DNA from: a virus | IMG/VR virus record: IMGVR_UViG_3300031951_000236 | Span: 1 to 51,571 of that record | Direction: 5' to 3' (one strand) | DNA length: 51,571 nt | Shown: positions 3,349 through 51,571 of the stretch, in pieces | Position numbering within the stretch: the first letter of the stretch is position 1 | Layout of the letters: every line of letters starts with the position of its first letter | Made by a program: the position numbers and the translations under genes | Notes under the pieces: generated by a model | The model's input: the letters and a program-made list of their open reading frames with translations, nothing else | Told to the model about the DNA's origin: nothing | Databases searched by the model: none

Positions 3349-3421
3349 GGGGCTATTGTCTAATGGTGCAGGACGGCGACCTTCAGATTCGCAGGTGAGA
3401 GTTCAATTCTCTCTAGCCCTA
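3349..3421 (+). tRNA. tRNA with predicted anticodon UCA (candidate opal suppressor)
   Basis: A 73-nt cloverleaf: acceptor GGGGCTA/TAGCCCT with A73, D-stem GTCT/GGAC, and T-arm GAGAG-TTCAATT-CTCTC. The anticodon arm is GCGAC-CTTCAGA-TTCGC, so with U33 in place the anticodon is TCA, which reads UGA. The C31-T39 pair is mismatched and position 37 is G rather than the A usual for UGA or UNN readers, so decoding efficiency is uncertain. The D-arm resembles the tRNA-Glu that follows it. A tRNA-Sec is excluded by arm lengths. It may serve readthrough of the TGA at 50231. Confidence 0.6.
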
Positions 3422-3432
3422 CTACAAATTAT

Positions 3433-3547: not shown

Positions 3548-4120
3548 ATGAAAACAATTGGTTATAAATTAGAACCATTTTCAGTTATTGGCGTAAAGCC
3601 AGGTGCACTATCTGGAGATGATTCATTTCAAGAAATTACAGAAAAATCCTTTTCAGGAAAATGGAAAGTGATTGTATTTTATCCAAAGGACTTTACTTTT
3701 GTATGCCCAACAGAAATTGTGGCATATGACAAGTTAGTTAATGACTTTAATGATCGTGATGCAATTCTTATGACAGGCTCAACAGACAACGAGTTCTGTA
3801 AAATTGCATGGCGTAATGCACATGAAGATCTAAAGAAGACAAACTCATGGATGTTTGCAGATCAGATTCGTGATTGGAATTGGGAAAGTGAAGACGATAG
3901 AGGTTATACTGGTCTTGCAAACCAACTTGGTATTTTAAACAAAGATGGCGTAGCACTTCGTGCAACATTTATTGTTGATCCAGAAAATGTTATTCAGCAT
4001 GTAACAGTAAATAACCTTAATGTTGGTCGCAGTCCAGAAGAAACTCTTCGTATTCTTGACGCACTTCAAACTGGTGAACTTTGTGCCTGCAACAGAACAG
4101 TTGGCGGAGAAACTTTGTGA
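3548..4120 (+). CDS. ahpC: Alkyl hydroperoxide reductase AhpC (2-Cys peroxiredoxin)
   Basis: A 190-residue peroxiredoxin that reduces hydrogen peroxide, organic peroxides and peroxynitrite. The peroxidatic cysteine is C53 in FTFVCPTEI. The resolving cysteines are in the C-terminal tail LCACNRTVGG (C179, C181), an arrangement known from the AhpD-dependent actinobacterial AhpC. An AGAAAGAG ribosome binding site precedes the ATG and a TACAAT -10 lies further upstream. The TGA stop overlaps the GTG start of ahpD. An ahpC-ahpD operon is a bacterial antioxidant unit and is unusual in a phage. Confidence 0.93.
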   Translation: MKTIGYKLEPFSVIGVKPGALSGDDSFQEITEKSFSGKWKVIVFYPKDFTFVCPTEIVAYDKLVNDFNDRDAILMTGSTDNEFCKIAWRNAHEDLKKTNSWMFADQIRDWNWESEDDRGYTGLANQLGILNKDGVALRATFIVDPENVIQHVTVNNLNVGRSPEETLRILDALQTGELCACNRTVGGETL

Positions 4121-4629
4121 GTTGGGTAGATGAAATTAAGGAACTTGTTCCTGAATATGCAAAAGATATTAAACTAAATCTTGATGCAGTTATTAATAGA
4201 AGTTCAATCGATTACGATTATGCTTCAGCATTGTCACTTGCAGCAGCACTTGCTACAGGTAATCAAGATATCGTTGCAATGATCTCTTCAGGTGTTTCTG
4301 ATGATGTAGAAAAAAATGCAGCATTTACTGCAGCAGCATTGATGGCACAAAATAATGTTTGGTATCCATATACCGAGATGGCAGATGATCCTAATCTAAC
4401 TGGATTACCTGCACAACTTAGAATGAATGCCATCGCATCTCATGGTGGAACAACAAAGGCTAAGTTTGAATCTTATGCTTTGATTGCTTCTATTATTGGT
4501 AAATGTCATTTTTGTGTAAAAGCACATTATGAAACATTAAAGCAAGAAGGCTATACTACTGAACAGTTGCGTGATATCGGAAGAATTGCAGCAACAATCA
4601 ATGCAATTGCAAAGGTTGTAGTAGCGTAG
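4117..4629 (+). CDS. ahpD: Alkylhydroperoxidase AhpD
   Basis: About 170 residues from GTG at 4117, which overlaps the ahpC stop as GTGA; this start gives SWVDEIKELVPEYAKDIKLN, matching the usual AhpD N-terminus. The active site CHFCVKAH has the CxxC pair and the downstream His of the AhpD proton-relay motif, with the alpha-helical DUF-like fold expected. AhpD recycles oxidised AhpC using lipoamide and dihydrolipoamide dehydrogenase, which the host would supply. Translational coupling suggests equal production of both proteins. Confidence 0.92.
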   Translation: MSWVDEIKELVPEYAKDIKLNLDAVINRSSIDYDYASALSLAAALATGNQDIVAMISSGVSDDVEKNAAFTAAALMAQNNVWYPYTEMADDPNLTGLPAQLRMNAIASHGGTTKAKFESYALIASIIGKCHFCVKAHYETLKQEGYTTEQLRDIGRIAATINAIAKVVVA

Positions 4630-33410: not shown

Positions 33411-34130
33411 ATGGCTGTTTCTAAATCAATGGACTTCCCTGGTGCAAAAAAATCAAGTTATGCTGCACAAGTTGTAGAAACTCAAAATACCAATACAGAT
33501 GTTTTAGTTAATTATGTACCAGTTCCTGGCCCGATGGGGCCACAAGGACCACAAGGTGTACCTGGACCCCAGGGGCCAGCAGGAAAAGACGGCAGTCAGG
33601 GTCCTAGAGGTGAAAAAGGAGTACCTGGAAGAGATGGCACAAGTTCTTTATCATCTTCTGGCCAACAGTCTGGATGGGCTGCATACTTTAATAAAGATAA
33701 AAAAGAAATAAGGTTAGGTGTAAATCAAGGTGATGATGGCTGGGTAAGTGTTTGGGTGGATTCTGAAGGAATAAATACTAACGAGAAATATTTACCAGAG
33801 GGATCGGTAAGTCTCTGGAATCCTCATACTAGACAGTTTAGTTTTAAACGACTAAAAGAGGGAGCGCAGGTTTTTATAACATATAATTTTGAACTTACTA
33901 CATATTCTAACAATACAGAGGTTTGGATTAGGACACTTTTCCCTAAATCTACCACCGAAATTTCTCAATTTGTTGCTTCTTTAAAATATCAGTATGTTTA
34001 TAATATTTATGTTACACAGCACTTTTTTATTGAAAATGGTGCAATGTTGGAGGGCGGGGCTATTCCTCAAATAAGAGCAGACTATGACTCTTCTGTTTTG
34101 ATGAATTCTATATACGTCAGCGTGGTATAA
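33411..34130 (+). CDS. Collagen-like tail fibre
   Basis: 239 residues. Residues 40-80 are Gly-X-Y repeats (GPMGPQGPQGVPGPQGPAGK, then GSQGPRGEKGVPGRDG), forming a triple helix. N-terminal 36 residues are an attachment domain and the C-terminal 150 residues a beta-rich head. Collagen-like fibres are common phage adhesins. Its Gly-Pro repeats could be substrates of the prolyl-hydroxylase-like oxygenases at 38081-39246. It opens the tail-fibre region. Confidence 0.85.
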   Translation: MAVSKSMDFPGAKKSSYAAQVVETQNTNTDVLVNYVPVPGPMGPQGPQGVPGPQGPAGKDGSQGPRGEKGVPGRDGTSSLSSSGQQSGWAAYFNKDKKEIRLGVNQGDDGWVSVWVDSEGINTNEKYLPEGSVSLWNPHTRQFSFKRLKEGAQVFITYNFELTTYSNNTEVWIRTLFPKSTTEISQFVASLKYQYVYNIYVTQHFFIENGAMLEGGAIPQIRADYDSSVLMNSIYVSVV

Positions 34131-35564: not shown

Positions 35565-35677
35565 TGGAATCAAAAGAGACACAAATTTTAAAAGAAAGAG
35601 CAATAGCAAAATTGGTGTCTTTGGGTTTAACAGAAGCAGAATTAAGAGCGTTGGGGTTGATATCTGATGCCAATTGA
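35564..35677 (+). CDS. Small helical protein (37 aa)
   Basis: MESKETQILKERAIAKLVSL then GLTEAELRALGLISDAN. Starts in TAATG of the preceding gene and its TGA overlaps the next start by 11 bases. The ELRALG pattern is a short helix common at tail-gene junctions. It may be an adapter or chaperone peptide. Confidence 0.6.
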   Translation: MESKETQILKERAIAKLVSLGLTEAELRALGLISDAN

Positions 35678-37598
35678 GTCTAATGGTAAAACAGCATACA
35701 TATATTCTAACGGCAACTGGTATCCAATTGCTGGAAGCATAAATACATCACAAAACTATAACTGGACTGGAGAGCATACTTTTGCTTCAGAGGTTACATT
35801 TAATGATGTACTTAATGCAAAAGCAGGAATAAACAATTTTCAAAATTTTACAGAAAGAGATTCTGTACTTTCATCACCAACTAACGGAATTGTATGTTTT
35901 GTAAGACAAGACAACGATGGCGGATTATATAATCAGTTGCAGTATTACTATAACGGCGTATGGAAAAATGTATACGGATACTCCCTAATATTGCCAAAAC
36001 TTGGTAGTTATACTGTTACAGAAAAAGATGCAGGTAAAATTATAACCGTTTCAAGTTCTTCATCATCTGTAATTACATTACCAGCAAATTCTACAGAAGC
36101 AATATCGTCTGGATATAAAATAGAAGTAGTAAGACTTGGTACTGGAAGTGTTCAGGTTACAGGAGAATCTGGCGTAACCATTAATGCTAAGGGAACGTCT
36201 GGTGCTTTAATAGATTCTCAATATGGAAAGATTACAGTTTTAAAAACAGATACAAATACATGGGTTGCCTATGGAGATATATCAGAAGGATCTTCTTCTC
36301 CATCACCAGCACCAACACCAGCCCCAGTTTCACCTTCACCAGTTTCCCCTTCACCTGTAGCACCTAGCCCTGTAGCCCCTTCGCCAACTCCAACACCAGT
36401 GCCTGCTCCAGTTGCACCTTCACCAGTTTCACCTGTTGCACCAGTAGTGCCAGTTGCTCCATCACCTATTGCACCTTCACCTGCTCCTTCACCTGCTCCC
36501 TCACCTGCTCCTTCACCTGCTGCACCAGCACCTATTTCACCAGCACCTGTAGCACCTCAATATACTAATTATTATGGATATTGTGATTTAAGTAATAACC
36601 CAGTAGGACCTTTCGGACCATATGATTATAGTTGTGAACAACTTTATGCTACACAAGAAAGCGCAAATGGATATCCACCAATTGGATGGGCTTGCGGACC
36701 AACTCCTACTGCTGGAACACCTAGTTGTACAGTAACCCCAGCACCAGTTGCTCCTTCCCCTGCTGCACCATCCCCTGCTGCACCAGCACCAGTCTCTTCA
36801 TGTAACCCAGCAGACGCATGGTCTTATACACAAGGAATGTGTCAGGCTTGTGGATACTACTGGTCTTCAACATTTGGCGAATGCTCAACTACACCATGGG
36901 CACCAGTAACTCCAGCACCAGTAGCACCAAGTCCAGTAGCACCTGCTCCAGCAGCCCCTTCACCAGCATCTTCTTGTAACTCAGCAGACGCATGGTCTTA
37001 TACACAGTCAATGTGTCAGGCTTGTGGTTATTATTGGTCATCAACATTTGGAGAGTGTTCAACTACACCTTGGGCACCAGTAGCACCATCGCCAGCAGCA
37101 CCATCGCCAGCAGCACCATCGCCAGCGCCTTCACCTGCTGCCCCATCTCCTACGCCAGTATCTTCATGTAACCCAGCAAATGCCTGGTCCTATAACCAAT
37201 CAACATGTCAGGCTTGCGGATACTATTGGTCTTCAACATTTGGAGAGTGCTCAACTACACCGTGGACTCCATCACCTTCACCAGTAGCACCTTCACCAGT
37301 AGCACCTTCACCAGTAGCGCCTAGCCCTGTAGCGCCTAGCCCAGTTGCTCCGTCACCTGTTGCACCAGTAGCACCTTCACCAGCATCACCTAGCCCAGTA
37401 GCCCCTAGCCCAGTAGCGCCTAGCCCTGTAGCGCCTAGCCCTGTAGCCCCTAGCCCAGCAGCGCCTAGCCCAGCAGCGCCTAGCCCTGTAGCGCCTAGCC
37501 CAGTTGCTTCATGCGATTGTGAAACACAAGGATGTACAACTACATGCTGTATCCCATGTGGAGGTATGATGAGCGGTGGATCATGCGTCTTCTGTTAA
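35667..37598 (+). CDS. Pro-rich tail protein with Cys-rich modules
   Basis: 643 residues. The N-terminal 210 residues form a beta-rich shaft ending NTWVAYGDISEG. Pro-rich repeats of the type PSPVAPSP and PAPSPA then alternate with three copies of a 33-residue module (starting CNPADAWSYTQGMCQACGYY, codons 379, 437 and 501) that has four Cys. The end has eight Cys in a pattern CDC..QGC...CC..CGG..SGG.C..C. The homologous C-terminus in the gene at 47879 is separated from its body by a TGA. Extensin-like composition suggests modification by nearby oxygenases and glycosyltransferases. Likely a receptor-binding protein. Confidence 0.85.
   Translation: MPIESNGKTAYIYSNGNWYPIAGSINTSQNYNWTGEHTFASEVTFNDVLNAKAGINNFQNFTERDSVLSSPTNGIVCFVRQDNDGGLYNQLQYYYNGVWKNVYGYSLILPKLGSYTVTEKDAGKIITVSSSSSSVITLPANSTEAISSGYKIEVVRLGTGSVQVTGESGVTINAKGTSGALIDSQYGKITVLKTDTNTWVAYGDISEGSSSPSPAPTPAPVSPSPVSPSPVAPSPVAPSPTPTPVPAPVAPSPVSPVAPVVPVAPSPIAPSPAPSPAPSPAPSPAAPAPISPAPVAPQYTNYYGYCDLSNNPVGPFGPYDYSCEQLYATQESANGYPPIGWACGPTPTAGTPSCTVTPAPVAPSPAAPSPAAPAPVSSCNPADAWSYTQGMCQACGYYWSSTFGECSTTPWAPVTPAPVAPSPVAPAPAAPSPASSCNSADAWSYTQSMCQACGYYWSSTFGECSTTPWAPVAPSPAAPSPAAPSPAPSPAAPSPTPVSSCNPANAWSYNQSTCQACGYYWSSTFGECSTTPWTPSPSPVAPSPVAPSPVAPSPVAPSPVAPSPVAPVAPSPASPSPVAPSPVAPSPVAPSPVAPSPAAPSPAAPSPVAPSPVASCDCETQGCTTTCCIPCGGMMSGGSCVFC
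36801..37265 (+). repeat. Three Cys-rich 33-residue modules
   Basis: Modules at 36801-36899, 36975-37073 and 37167-37265 are nearly identical (CxPADAWSY, MCQACGYYWSSTF, GECSTTPW), each with four Cys, separated by Pro-rich linkers. Confidence 0.8.
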
Positions 37599-38080: not shown

Positions 38081-38683
38081 ATGGAAAAAATAGAATTAGC
38101 ACCAGGAATAGTATCTTATAAAAATGTTTTAGATCAGTCTGATTTAAATACATTAACAGATGATATAGAAGAAAGTTTAAAAGCCTTAAACATTGACTGG
38201 CAACTTTCAGAAGTTCAGGGTTCACAATATGTCGAGGTAGACACAAATTCTAGAGATACACATATTATAGGAGTTCCGTATTACGATAAAATAGTTGAAG
38301 AATTTCATAGTCCATCAGATGCATTCTTTATAAGTTTATCTAATTTATTTTTTTCAGCATTTAATCCAAGAGAAATAGATTATAAAAATATGTATCAATT
38401 TGCAACAGACTGGCATGATCAATATGGACTTTTAAAATACGGGGTAGGTCAAAAGTTTACAAACCATATAGATGATCATATAAATCATCATAGAAGAATG
38501 TCTACAACATTTTATTTAAATGATAATTATGAGGGTGGCGAAATTTTATTTCCAAGATTTGGAATAGATCACAAACCAGAAAAAAATGAATTATTGGTTT
38601 TTCCATCTACATATGTTTATAATCATTCTGTACTTCCAGTAAAAAGTGGAACAAGATATGCTGTTGTGAGTTGGTTAAAATGA
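38081..38683 (+). CDS. 2-oxoglutarate/Fe(II)-dependent oxygenase, P4H-like (copy 9)
   Basis: 200 residues with H129-x-D131 in TNHIDDHINHH, H182 in YNHSV and R192. AVVS near the C-terminus and FYLNDNYEGGEILFP are classic P4H-like elements. It is the first enzyme gene after the Pro-rich tail protein. Prolyl-4-hydroxylase activity on PSP or collagen-like repeats is an inference. TGA overlaps the next ATG. Confidence 0.86.
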   Translation: MEKIELAPGIVSYKNVLDQSDLNTLTDDIEESLKALNIDWQLSEVQGSQYVEVDTNSRDTHIIGVPYYDKIVEEFHSPSDAFFISLSNLFFSAFNPREIDYKNMYQFATDWHDQYGLLKYGVGQKFTNHIDDHINHHRRMSTTFYLNDNYEGGEILFPRFGIDHKPEKNELLVFPSTYVYNHSVLPVKSGTRYAVVSWLK

Positions 38684-47878: not shown

Positions 47879-50233
47879 ATGGCAACAAGAATGCAACAGC
47901 GCAGAGGAACAGCAGCACAATGGACTTCTGCAGATCCAATTTTAGCAGCAGGCGAAATCGGCTTTGAGTCCGATACAATCAAGTTTAAGATAGGTAATGG
48001 TGTTGATCACTGGTCAGACCTAAACTACTTCGTTGATGGAGCCACACTTGTTGACGGCGCTCCAGGATTATTAGATACTTTAAATGAACTTGCTGCAGCA
48101 ATTGGAGACGATCCAGCATTTTTTGCTACAGTAGCAAGTGATGTTAGTGCAGTTCAGTCTACTCTCTCCACACATGAAACTGACTCAACAAATGTTCACG
48201 GAATTACAAATACTGCAGATTTAGCAACAAAGTCTTATGCAGATACTGCAGTTTCAACTCATAATTCAGACACAACAAATATTCACGGTATTTCTGATAC
48301 AGCAGATTTAGTTTATGATGCTGACTTAGATGCACATACAAACTCAACAACAAGCGTACACGGAATTAATAATACGGCAGATCTTGCAACACAAACATAT
48401 GTAACTAATGCTATTTCTGATCACCACCTAGAAACAGAAAATATTCATGGAATTACAAATACAGCAGATTTAGCAGTACATTCTGATTTGTCTACACTTG
48501 AATCAAATCTTGAATCATACACAACTGATGCAATTGCAGATCACGAAGCAGATACCCTGGATGTTCACGGTATTGCAGACACAGCAGCATTGGCTACAAA
48601 GATATATGCTGACGGTAAGGCATCAGATGCAGAAACAGCAGCGACAAATGCAGCAGCATCTGCATTATCTTCACATAGTTCAGACACAACAGATGTTCAT
48701 GGAATCTCTGACACATCTCTATTGGCAAGAACTGACGGAGCAGTATTTACTGGTTATGTAACTGTTCCACAAACACCAGTTTTAAACGGACATGCTGCAA
48801 GCAAAAGATACGTAGATCAGGTTGCTGCTGGAATTAACTTCCACCAACCAGTTGTTGCAGCAACAACAGCAGCAATTACTCTTAGCGGAACACAAACAGT
48901 CGATGGAGTTTCTTTATCAGTTGGTGATCGTGTTCTTGTAAAGAATCAAGCATCACTACCAGATAACGGTATTTATGTAGTAGCATCAGGCTCATGGACA
49001 AGAGCAGAAGATGCAGATGGAAATCCAGAGGGAGAATTAGATACTGGAGACTTTGTTTATGTTTTGAATGGAACCTATAACAAGGGATTTGGATTTGTAT
49101 TATCATCACCTGGACCAATTGAAGTTGGAACATCAAATGTAAATTATGTTCCGTTTAACTCTACAGTTACAGTAGAACCAGGATATGGTTTAGAAGAGAC
49201 TGTTCCAGGAGAACTTGCCGTAGATGGATCAGTTATTGCTCCTTTGGCAAATCCAACATTTACTGGTACCGTAACATTGCCTAACTCTACAGTTTCAGAA
49301 GCAGTTATTGCAAATGATGCAGTTACAACTTCAAAGATATTAGACTCAGCAGTTACTACAGGCAAGATTAACGATTCTGCAGTTACAACTGGAAAGATTA
49401 ATGGCGGAGCAGTTACAGAAGATAAAATTGCAAATGGCTCAGTTACAACTGATAAAATTAATAATTTAGCAGTTACAACTGGAAAGATTAATGATTCTGC
49501 AGTAACAACTGATAAGGTACATGATTTAGCAATTACAACTGCTAAACTAGATGCATTATCAGTAACAACTGGAAAAATTACTGACTCTGCAGTTACTACA
49601 GACAAGATTAACGACTCTGCAGTTACTACTGCTAAGGTAAATGATCTAGCAATTACAACTGCAAAGATAGACGATGGAGCAGTTACATCTGCTAAAATTG
49701 CAGATGGAGCAATTGTTGACGCAGACATTAATGCAACAGCAGCAATTGCCCAGTCTAAGATTTCAGGTCTTACAACTGATCTAGGTCTTAAGGCACCAAA
49801 GGCAGACCCAACATTTACTGGTACAGCAACAGCAGCCAATTTAACTGCTACTGGTACAGTAACAGTATCATCATCTGGAATAGTATTTACAGATGGAACA
49901 CAAACAAAAGAAGGCGTTCCATCAAGAACTCCAATTGTGTCAAAAACAGTAAGTTATACATTAAGTGCACTAACAGAAAGAGATTCATTAATTGAAGTTA
50001 ACTCTTCTTCTGCAACAACAGTAACAATTCCAACAGACGCATCTGTGGCGTTCCCAGTAGGAACTTCCCTAGATATTCTTCAGGTTGGAACTGGACAAGT
50101 TACAATTGCAGGTGCATCTGGAGTAACTGTTAATGCAACTCCTGGACTTAAGTTAAGAACACAATGGTCTGGTGCTACATTATTCAAGAGAGCATCAAAC
50201 ACTTGGGTTGTTTACGGCGATCTATCTGCCTGA
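47879..50233 (+). CDS. Tail fibre ending at UGA, with in-frame extension
   Basis: 784 residues: MATRMQQRRGTAAQWTSADP (a shared receptor-end module), repeated H-rich VHGI-TADL units, a GINFHQPVVAATTAAITLSG segment, an array of A-V-T-T-x-K-I-N-D repeats (around nucleotides 49318-49740) and a head ending NTWVVYGDLSA. The stop is TGA (50231-50233) and the same frame continues without interruption to TAA at 50780. The homologous 643-residue tail protein has NTWVAYGDISEG joined directly to a Pro-rich tail. Readthrough would make a 967-residue product with a Pro-rich, eight-Cys C-terminus. Confidence 0.82.
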   Translation: MATRMQQRRGTAAQWTSADPILAAGEIGFESDTIKFKIGNGVDHWSDLNYFVDGATLVDGAPGLLDTLNELAAAIGDDPAFFATVASDVSAVQSTLSTHETDSTNVHGITNTADLATKSYADTAVSTHNSDTTNIHGISDTADLVYDADLDAHTNSTTSVHGINNTADLATQTYVTNAISDHHLETENIHGITNTADLAVHSDLSTLESNLESYTTDAIADHEADTLDVHGIADTAALATKIYADGKASDAETAATNAAASALSSHSSDTTDVHGISDTSLLARTDGAVFTGYVTVPQTPVLNGHAASKRYVDQVAAGINFHQPVVAATTAAITLSGTQTVDGVSLSVGDRVLVKNQASLPDNGIYVVASGSWTRAEDADGNPEGELDTGDFVYVLNGTYNKGFGFVLSSPGPIEVGTSNVNYVPFNSTVTVEPGYGLEETVPGELAVDGSVIAPLANPTFTGTVTLPNSTVSEAVIANDAVTTSKILDSAVTTGKINDSAVTTGKINGGAVTEDKIANGSVTTDKINNLAVTTGKINDSAVTTDKVHDLAITTAKLDALSVTTGKITDSAVTTDKINDSAVTTAKVNDLAITTAKIDDGAVTSAKIADGAIVDADINATAAIAQSKISGLTTDLGLKAPKADPTFTGTATAANLTATGTVTVSSSGIVFTDGTQTKEGVPSRTPIVSKTVSYTLSALTERDSLIEVNSSSATTVTIPTDASVAFPVGTSLDILQVGTGQVTIAGASGVTVNATPGLKLRTQWSGATLFKRASNTWVVYGDLSA
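49318..49740 (+). repeat. AVTTxKINDS repeat array
   Basis: About fourteen tandem units of ten residues (AVTTGKINDS and variants such as AVTTDKINDS and AITTAKIDDG) in the tail fibre, with a 30-base nucleotide period. Such repeats form beta-helical shafts. Confidence 0.75.
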
Positions 50234-50782
50234 ATAGGTAGTCCTTCACCCGCACCCGCTCCTGTAGCGCCTAGCCCAGTTGCACCTTCACCAGTTGCAC
50301 CTTCCCCTGTACCATCACCAGTAACACCACCATCATTCCCACCTGCACCAACACCTGCACCAACACCAGCACCTGTAGCACCGTCTCCAGTTGCACCAGC
50401 ACCTGTAGCACCGTCTCCAGTTGCACCAGCACCTGTAGCACCGTCTCCAGTTGCACCAACACCAACACCAACACCCGCACCTGCGCCAGTGGCACCTTCA
50501 CCAGTACCAACACCTGCACCTGCGCCAGTGGCACCTTCGCCAGTCTATGTAGCACCTACACCTGTAGCACCTACACCAGTACCAACACCTGCACCTACAC
50601 CAACCCCTACACCTGCTCCAGTTGCACCTTCACCAGTTCCAACACCAGTCCCAGCACCTGTAGCAGCACCTTCACCAACTCCAGTTGCTGCATCTTGTGA
50701 CTGTTCTTGGCAAGGATGTAGCGTATCATGTTGCTTACCATGCGGAGGTATAATGAGCGGAGGAGAATGTATAGTTTGTTAA
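50231..50782 (+). other. UGA readthrough region and Pro-rich Cys-rich extension
   Basis: From the TGA at 50231 the frame continues 182 codons to TAA (50780-50782). It opens IGSPSPAPAPVAPSP and has repeats of PAPVAPSP and PTPAP, then ends in eight Cys with the spacing of the 643-residue protein: CDC..QGC...CC..CGG..SGG.C..C. No start codon with a Shine-Dalgarno sequence lies near its beginning. The composition and Cys pattern show that this region is still under protein-level selection. Confidence 0.8.
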
Positions 50783-50859: not shown

Positions 50860-51571
50860 ATGGCAACAAAGAAAACTGGAAGAAAATCTCAGGCAGCAAA
50901 TGACTTTTTAGAGCCTAAAGCACCAACTGGAGTATCTGCATCAGATGTAGGTACAAGTAGATCATTTAATGATGGTGCAGCAGTTGTTTCATTTTCTTTG
51001 CCAGCAGATTCTCCTGCAGCAACATCTTATACAGTAACTGCTAGTGATGGTAAAACAGCAACAGGTGCTTCTTCTCCAATAACAATTGCTGGACTTACAT
51101 CAAACACAAATTATACATTTACAGTAACTGCTACAAACAATGCTGGAACATCTTTATCTAGCGCTGCTTCAGCATCAACACTAATTACAACTGTACCAGG
51201 ACTTCCAACAGGAATTTCTGCTACTTCAACAGTAGCAAATCAAGACACAGTCTCATGGACTGCCCCATCAAATAATGGTGGAAAAACTATAACTGGATAC
51301 AAGGTAAAGTCTTCAGACGGACCAGTTTATACAGTAGGCAATGTAACATCAACTACAATTTCAGAAACTGGTGGAACAAGCCAGACATATCAGGTTTTAG
51401 CAATTAATGGTAATGGAGATGGAGCATACTCTGCAAGTTCTTCTTCAGTTACTACGGTTTCTCCATTCTTCCCGCCATTCTTCCCACCATTCTTCCCACC
51501 ATCATTCCCGTTCTTCCCACCATTCTTCCCACCTTACTTCCCACCATTCTTCCCACCATCATTCCCGTTCT
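50860..51571 (+). CDS. Fibronectin type III-like fibre protein, cut by window end
   Basis: Begins MATKKTGRKSQAANDFLEPK after AAGGAG, then two FN3-like domains (roughly residues 25-105 with TSYTVTASDGKTATGA; 110-205 with TGYKVKSSDGPVYTVG and QVLAINGNGDGAYS). It then enters a run of FFPPFFPP repeats to the window edge. FN3 domains in phage tail proteins help bind carbohydrate surfaces. The end of the gene is not seen. Confidence 0.82.
   Translation, partial: MATKKTGRKSQAANDFLEPKAPTGVSASDVGTSRSFNDGAAVVSFSLPADSPAATSYTVTASDGKTATGASSPITIAGLTSNTNYTFTVTATNNAGTSLSSAASASTLITTVPGLPTGISATSTVANQDTVSWTAPSNNGGKTITGYKVKSSDGPVYTVGNVTSTTISETGGTSQTYQVLAINGNGDGAYSASSSSVTTVSPFFPPFFPPFFPPSFPFFPPFFPPYFPPFFPPSFPF

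What the first reader, a model, noticed from the sequence alone, without database searches (positions are those of the whole stretch)
50231..50782. Tail fibre with in-frame UGA followed by a conserved Pro-rich, eight-Cys extension, plus a UCA-anticodon tRNA in the same phage
Seen: the 784-codon fibre frame stops at TGA (50231-50233) and continues 182 codons to TAA with no other stop. The extension ends with the same eight-Cys pattern (CDC..QGC...CC..CGG..SGG.C..C) and the same PAPS/PVAPSP repeats as the 643-residue tail protein at 35667. There the equivalent NTWVAYGDIS-EG joins the Pro-rich part without a stop. A tRNA at 3349-3421 has predicted anticodon UCA. Other TGA stops in the window mostly overlap a following start and are followed soon by another stop, so the extension is unusual. 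Inference: suppressed readthrough makes two forms of the fibre, short and extended. This has a parallel in phage Q-beta, whose readthrough protein is a minor virion component. A recent point mutation or sequencing error is the main alternative.
Basis: partly seen in the sequence, partly recalled or inferred. Interest (0 to 1): 0.9.

Follow-up and report, generated by a model that had tools for sequence, protein, structure and literature searches.

The report
Phage tail fibre extended beyond stop
In a freshwater-type bacterial virus, the gene for a tail fibre ends at a leaky kind of stop signal followed in frame by a conserved proline-rich stalk with a cysteine-rich tip, so the virus probably makes a few extended fibres among normal ones, although nobody has yet shown that protein.

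Summary
The 784-codon fibre (Mtd_N anchor, confidently folded C-terminal beta domain) stops at TGA 50231-50233; the same frame runs 182 more codons to TAA: a Pro-rich stalk plus an 8-Cys cap matching that of the tail protein at 35667. It is no sequencing error or nonsense mutation: the same TGA and open extension occur in four other contigs, and all 78 extension-less close relatives stop (TAA/TAG) at exactly this residue. The stop is ancestral; the extension was added behind it. Substitutions between two variants avoid second codon positions (9/2/12), gaps are multiples of three, and the cap keeps all 8 Cys relative to its paralogue. Stalk-cap modules are fused without a stop to neighbouring tail proteins in related phages. 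Best reading: low-level UGA readthrough makes a minor extended fibre, as in Q-beta A1. The tRNA link is weak: the UCA-anticodon tRNA is intact, but a sister phage has the identical tRNA and a TAA-ended fibre without extension, TGA is an ordinary stop elsewhere, and no second readthrough gene exists. A translationally silent module is not excluded. The extension has no Lys or Arg, so trypsin proteomics would miss it.

The parts
47879..50233 (+). Tail fibre ORF, 784 codons plus TGA (short form)
   Evidence: PHROG tail fiber/minor tail matches
47894..48004 (+). Mtd_N domain (virion-anchoring N-terminus, fibre residues 6-42)
   Evidence: Pfam PF18454 E=1.3e-11, above cut-off
49931..50230 (+). C-terminal beta domain of the fibre, complete at the codon before TGA
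   Evidence: AlphaFold2 with 50 homologues: pLDDT 92-98 from about residue 51 of the 150-aa piece to its last residue; phrog_8780 profile ends at residue 782; 82 family members end here
50231..50233 (+). In-frame TGA, context GCC TGA ATA (+4 A)
   Evidence: conserved in L003, L004, L005, L006
50234..50782 (+). Extension ORF, 182 codons plus TAA: Pro-rich stalk and 8-Cys cap
50696..50779 (+). 8-Cys C-terminal cap (28 codons)
   Evidence: same Cys register as 37512-37595; all 8 Cys kept over 28 substitutions
35667..37598 (+). Paralogous tail protein with the same C-terminal domain (39% over 98 aa) fused without a stop to a Pro-rich/Cys module
3349..3422 (+). tRNA with UCA anticodon, 4-bp anticodon stem; possible opal suppressor, link to the fibre unproven
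50860..51571 (+). Next gene (Fn3 domains plus FFPP repeats, runs off the window) with its own ribosome-binding site; in relatives it starts within about 45 nt of the fibre stop

Best explanation
The fibre gene makes two proteins. Most ribosomes stop at the ancestral stop position, now UGA, and give the normal 784-aa fibre with a complete C-terminal domain. A minority insert an amino acid at UGA and continue for 182 codons, giving a fibre that carries a long extended Pro-rich stalk tipped by an 8-Cys cap (disulphide-rich or metal-binding). Only a few subunits per virion would then carry the stalk, as with the A1 protein of Q-beta or the frameshift-added Ig domains of tailed phages. Shown: the TGA, its conservation, the ancestral stop position, the coding-like pattern of the extension, and in-frame use of the same module on another tail protein. 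Inferred: that readthrough occurs, by near-cognate host tRNA or by the phage UCA tRNA, and that the extended form is in the virion.
For: TGA plus open extension in five contigs, extension lengths 182/182/159/170/170 codons, never out of frame. 78 of 82 fibre-family C-termini stop at exactly this residue with TAA or TAG and have no extension; the 4 with TGA are the 4 with it, which is one lineage. DNA alignment of two variants: 23 substitutions at codon positions 9/2/12, gaps of 18 and 15 nt, no stop gained. The C-terminal domain is folded to the last residue before TGA. No start codon or Shine-Dalgarno-like sequence for separate translation near 50234. Stalk-cap modules are in frame on neighbouring tail proteins in this and related phages. 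UGA followed by A, and a UCA-anticodon tRNA with a 4-bp anticodon stem, are both compatible with leaky UGA (a 4-bp-stem tRNA-Trp increases UGA readthrough in E. coli, PMC13092985).
Against: No protein or ribosome data. All five contigs are one lineage, and the first 292 nt of the extension are identical between variants, so the divergence signal comes from the repetitive 3' half and the cap. Repeat units are multiples of 3, so in-frame gaps are expected anyway. No RNA structure lies behind the TGA (z = +0.8). The UCA tRNA also occurs in a sister phage without the extension.
Confidence: 0.55

Rival explanations
1. Silent passenger: recombination placed a copy of the stalk-cap module behind the fibre's ancestral stop, and it is not translated to any useful level. 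It looks coding because its source gene was coding and because the lineage is young.
For: Such modules move between tail proteins in this phage group; the fibre stop is ancestral; all copies are one lineage with an identical first 292 nt; cap changes between variants are near neutral.
Against: No gained stop or frameshift in five contigs; second codon positions are avoided (2 of 23); the stop is UGA with +4 A rather than the usual TAA of its close relatives; the module sits exactly in frame.
Confidence: 0.3
2. A special form of the best explanation: the phage-encoded UCA tRNA is a dedicated opal suppressor that drives fibre extension late in infection, as proposed for stop-recoded phages.
For: Intact UCA tRNA with canonical T-loop and 4-bp anticodon stem; suppressor tRNAs accompany recoding in other phages (PMC11210395).
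Against: Sister record G005 has the identical tRNA but a TAA-ended fibre with no extension; ordinary TGA stops are kept in the window; no other TGA-interrupted gene; the tRNA's amino acid is unknown.
Confidence: 0.13
3. The extension is translated separately from an internal start (GTG 50489 or a non-standard start just after TGA).
For: A 97-aa GTG ORF exists at 50489-50782.
Against: No Shine-Dalgarno-like sequence; the GTG lies inside the repeats; a free stalk fragment would have no anchor.
Confidence: 0.04
4. Sequencing or assembly error, or a recent nonsense mutation that truncated a longer fibre.
For: None found.
Against: Same TGA in five contigs from different metagenomes; all relatives stop at this residue.
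Confidence: 0.01
5. UGA is decoded as selenocysteine, or UGA is reassigned to an amino acid throughout this phage.
For: ARAGORN labels the tRNA SeC because of its anticodon.
Against: The tRNA is a 74-nt ordinary cloverleaf without the long variable arm of tRNA-Sec; no stem follows the TGA; TGA is a normal stop in about 17% of genes.
Confidence: 0.01

Closest known systems
Phage Q-beta A1 readthrough protein
   Same: A UGA at the end of a structural gene, an in-frame extension, and two forms expected from one gene. Readthrough of in-frame stops was first found there (PMC8310308).
   Different: RNA phage coat protein. Here it is a tail fibre of a dsDNA phage, the extension is a Pro-rich stalk with a Cys cap, and readthrough is not shown.
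Frameshift-added Ig-like domains of tailed phages (T3, A2, Listeria phages)
   Same: Mobile C-terminal domains that land in or out of frame on virion proteins and are then reached by recoding at a set ratio (PMC5009743).
   Different: Recoding here would be stop readthrough in frame, and the module is not Ig-like (no Pfam match).
Stop-recoded phages (codes 4 and 15) with suppressor tRNAs
   Same: A phage-encoded tRNA that can read a stop codon (PMC11210395).
   Different: Those reassign the codon in many genes; here one gene is affected and TGA stays a stop elsewhere.
Mtd-type tail fibres
   Same: Mtd_N anchor domain at the fibre N-terminus.
   Different: No diversity-generating cassette was looked for; the C-terminal domain is nearest phage spike and tailspike domains by fold.

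Membership tests
Programmed stop-codon readthrough (Q-beta A1 type) | Stop codon followed by a long in-frame ORF kept across relatives | tested here: met
   Five contigs, one lineage
Programmed stop-codon readthrough (Q-beta A1 type) | Protein-level selection on the extension | tested here: inconclusive
   Codon positions 9/2/12 and conserved Cys register, but repetitive sequence and few independent changes
Programmed stop-codon readthrough (Q-beta A1 type) | Extended protein made and present in virions | not testable with these tools
   No proteomics available
Programmed stop-codon readthrough (Q-beta A1 type) | Stimulatory RNA element 3' of the stop (not obligatory) | tested here: not met
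   Fold of 120 nt after TGA, z = +0.8
Stop-reassigned phage genome (code 4) | Many genes interrupted by TGA under the standard code | tested here: not met
   One candidate only; TGA is a normal stop
Stop-reassigned phage genome (code 4) | UCA-anticodon tRNA encoded | tested here: met
Selenoprotein | tRNA-Sec structure and a stem-loop after UGA | tested here: not met
   74-nt ordinary tRNA; no stem
Mtd-type tail fibre | Mtd_N domain | tested here: met
   PF18454 E=1.3e-11, 44.7 bits against cut-off 26.3
Ig-like domain extension by frameshift | Ig-like fold of the extension | tested here: not met
   Pro-rich plus Cys cap, no Pfam match

The most novel reading that the evidence does not exclude
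A dsDNA tailed phage encodes its own opal suppressor tRNA (UCA, 4-bp anticodon stem) and uses it to set the share of tail fibres that carry a proline-rich, cysteine-capped stalk: a phage-controlled translational switch in virion surface composition.
Probability: 0.12. Interest if true: 0.85.

Novelty: new variant of a known kind. Interest (0 to 1): 0.55.

Why it matters
Readthrough-extended structural proteins are classic in RNA phages, and frameshift-extended ones in tailed phages. A tail fibre of a dsDNA phage whose adhesive-looking module sits behind a conserved UGA was not found in the papers searched. It would be a natural case of bet-hedging in the receptor-facing part of the virion, and a snapshot of how mobile C-terminal modules are tried out behind a leaky stop before (or instead of) full fusion. 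It is directly testable. Because the extension has no Lys or Arg, existing trypsin-based virome proteomics would have missed it.

Tried and rejected
Sequencing or assembly error and nonsense mutation of a longer fibre: rejected. Selenocysteine and genome-wide UGA reassignment: rejected. Separate start for the extension: no ribosome-binding site. RNA stimulator after the TGA: none. Looking for other fibres with a TGA plus Pro-rich extension: three pattern scans gave only this lineage. Cys-cap pattern in viral contigs: this lineage plus one distant relative, L102, cut at its contig end. The same pattern in bacterial genomes: none. Host assignment through the AhpC-like gene failed; one conserved gene points to actinobacteriophages. 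The nearest tRNA to the UCA tRNA among the phage tRNAs is tRNA-Glu, only weakly similar, so its amino acid could not be inferred. A neutral simulation timed out once and was rerun; its protein-based alignment leans towards synonymous changes, so the DNA alignment is the one relied on for the two variants.

Full report
What was checked. The fibre ORF (47879-50233, 784 aa) ends in TGA, and the same frame continues 182 codons to TAA at 50782. The window is a 51.6-kb virus record, G+C 0.36, with nine tRNA genes including one with anticodon UCA at 3349-3422.

Not an error, and not a truncation. The search for relatives gave two contigs with an identical fibre (L003, L004) and two with a 98% identical fibre (L005, L006), from four metagenomes. 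All have the same TGA followed by an open extension of 182, 159, 170 and 170 codons. Of 82 fibre-family C-termini in the retrieved loci, 72 end in TAA, 6 in TAG and 4 in TGA. All end at the same residue, and only the four with TGA have a stalk-cap extension. So the stop position is ancestral and the extension is the later addition, the reverse of a nonsense mutation. In relatives the next gene starts within about 45 nt of the stop; here the extension plus 77 nt lies between them. TGA at this place does not by itself imply an extension.

The fibre is complete without the extension. It has an Mtd_N anchor (PF18454). The last 100 residues form a beta domain predicted with pLDDT 92-98 up to the last residue before TGA. 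By fold it is nearest to phage spike and tailspike domains (Pa223 capsid spike 9ny6, Klebsiella phage baseplate 9f4b, CBA120 TSP4), with modest TM-scores.

The extension looks like protein. It is a stalk of Ala/Ser/Thr/Val-Pro repeats with a 28-residue cap of eight Cys. The cap has the Cys register of the protein at 35667: 28 of 84 nt differ, 10 residues differ, no Cys is lost and five Cys codons differ silently. Simulated neutral change loses a Cys in more than 99.9% of runs. Part of that divergence may predate the move behind the TGA. Between the two variants of the extension, a DNA alignment shows 23 substitutions at codon positions 9/2/12 and gaps of 18 and 15 nt. Caveats: the first 292 nt are identical, the rest is repetitive, and the cap changes between variants are near neutral. 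There is no start codon or ribosome-binding site near 50234, so readthrough is the only ordinary way to translate it as part of an anchored protein.

The module belongs to a mobile set. The protein at 35667 has the fibre's C-terminal domain (39% over 98 aa) and continues without a stop into Pro-rich and Cys modules. Its relatives in other phages either stop at that place or continue into VTPVTP, PTPTPT or VAPTPV stalks, Cys modules or a Hint-like domain. The Fn3-FFPP gene next to the fibre often ends in a different Cys-rich cap. Tail proteins in this group thus appear to exchange stalk-cap ends, and in this lineage the fibre's copy sits behind a UGA.

The tRNA. It is an intact cloverleaf with a UCA anticodon, a 4-bp anticodon stem (C31.U39), G37, G1.U72 and A73. 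A 4-bp-stem tRNA-Trp raises UGA readthrough in E. coli (PMC13092985); there the unpaired position is at the top of the stem, here it is at the loop end and the anticodon is already cognate, so the parallel is loose. Among the window and 13 larger related records only the window and G005 have a UCA tRNA. G005's copy is identical, yet its fibre ends in TAA without an extension, and TGA is an ordinary stop in both. The other extension-bearing contigs are fragments that do not cover this region. The tRNA may help but is not tied to the fibre.

Mechanism and verdict. UGA followed by A with no downstream structure suggests low, unstimulated readthrough as in Q-beta, giving a minority of stalk-bearing fibres. 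I put 0.55 on this, about 0.12 of it on dedicated control by the phage tRNA, and 0.3 on a silent passenger module. The kind of thing is known from Q-beta A1 and from frameshift-added Ig domains in tailed phages (PMC8310308; PMC5009743). Its use on a dsDNA phage tail fibre through UGA, with this module, was not found in the papers searched.

Noticed in passing
L131 / G021:44557-47600 (minus strand): A homologue of the 35667 protein ends at TAA after a Cys module (CSSPFI*), and a 526-codon Pro-rich/Cys continuation lies in the -1 frame, overlapping at ACC TTT TAT CTA A; it could be a -1 frameshift at U_UUU_A or an assembly indel in repeats. The continuation ends in a Cys cap.
   Followed up: partly
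window 38081-38683, and G001 sequence beyond the window end: One 2OG-Fe(II) oxygenase gene (PF13640, the superfamily that includes prolyl 4-hydroxylases) in the window and a run of several similar genes just downstream of the fibre in G001. They could hydroxylate the Pro-rich stalks; nothing tested beyond the Pfam match.
   Followed up: partly
L007, L014, L019, L024, L032, L034, L038 and others: The Fn3-FFPP gene that follows the fibre often ends in a 20-40 residue cap with 6-10 Cys that differs strongly between phages; the window phage's copy lacks it.
   Followed up: partly
L132 (G010) and L133 (G030): Pro-rich tail proteins that end in a Hedgehog/intein-like (Hint) domain, recognised by eye from the sequence (CVEENTLVDTPNGQIPVKNLQVGD...).
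   Followed up: no
window 3548-4629: A peroxiredoxin (AhpC-like) and what looks like an AhpD-like gene beside the tRNA cluster; possible auxiliary metabolic genes (first gene 43-76% identical to bacterial genome hits).
   Followed up: partly
window 33411-34130: A protein with collagen-like repeats (PF01391) in the tail gene region.
   Followed up: no
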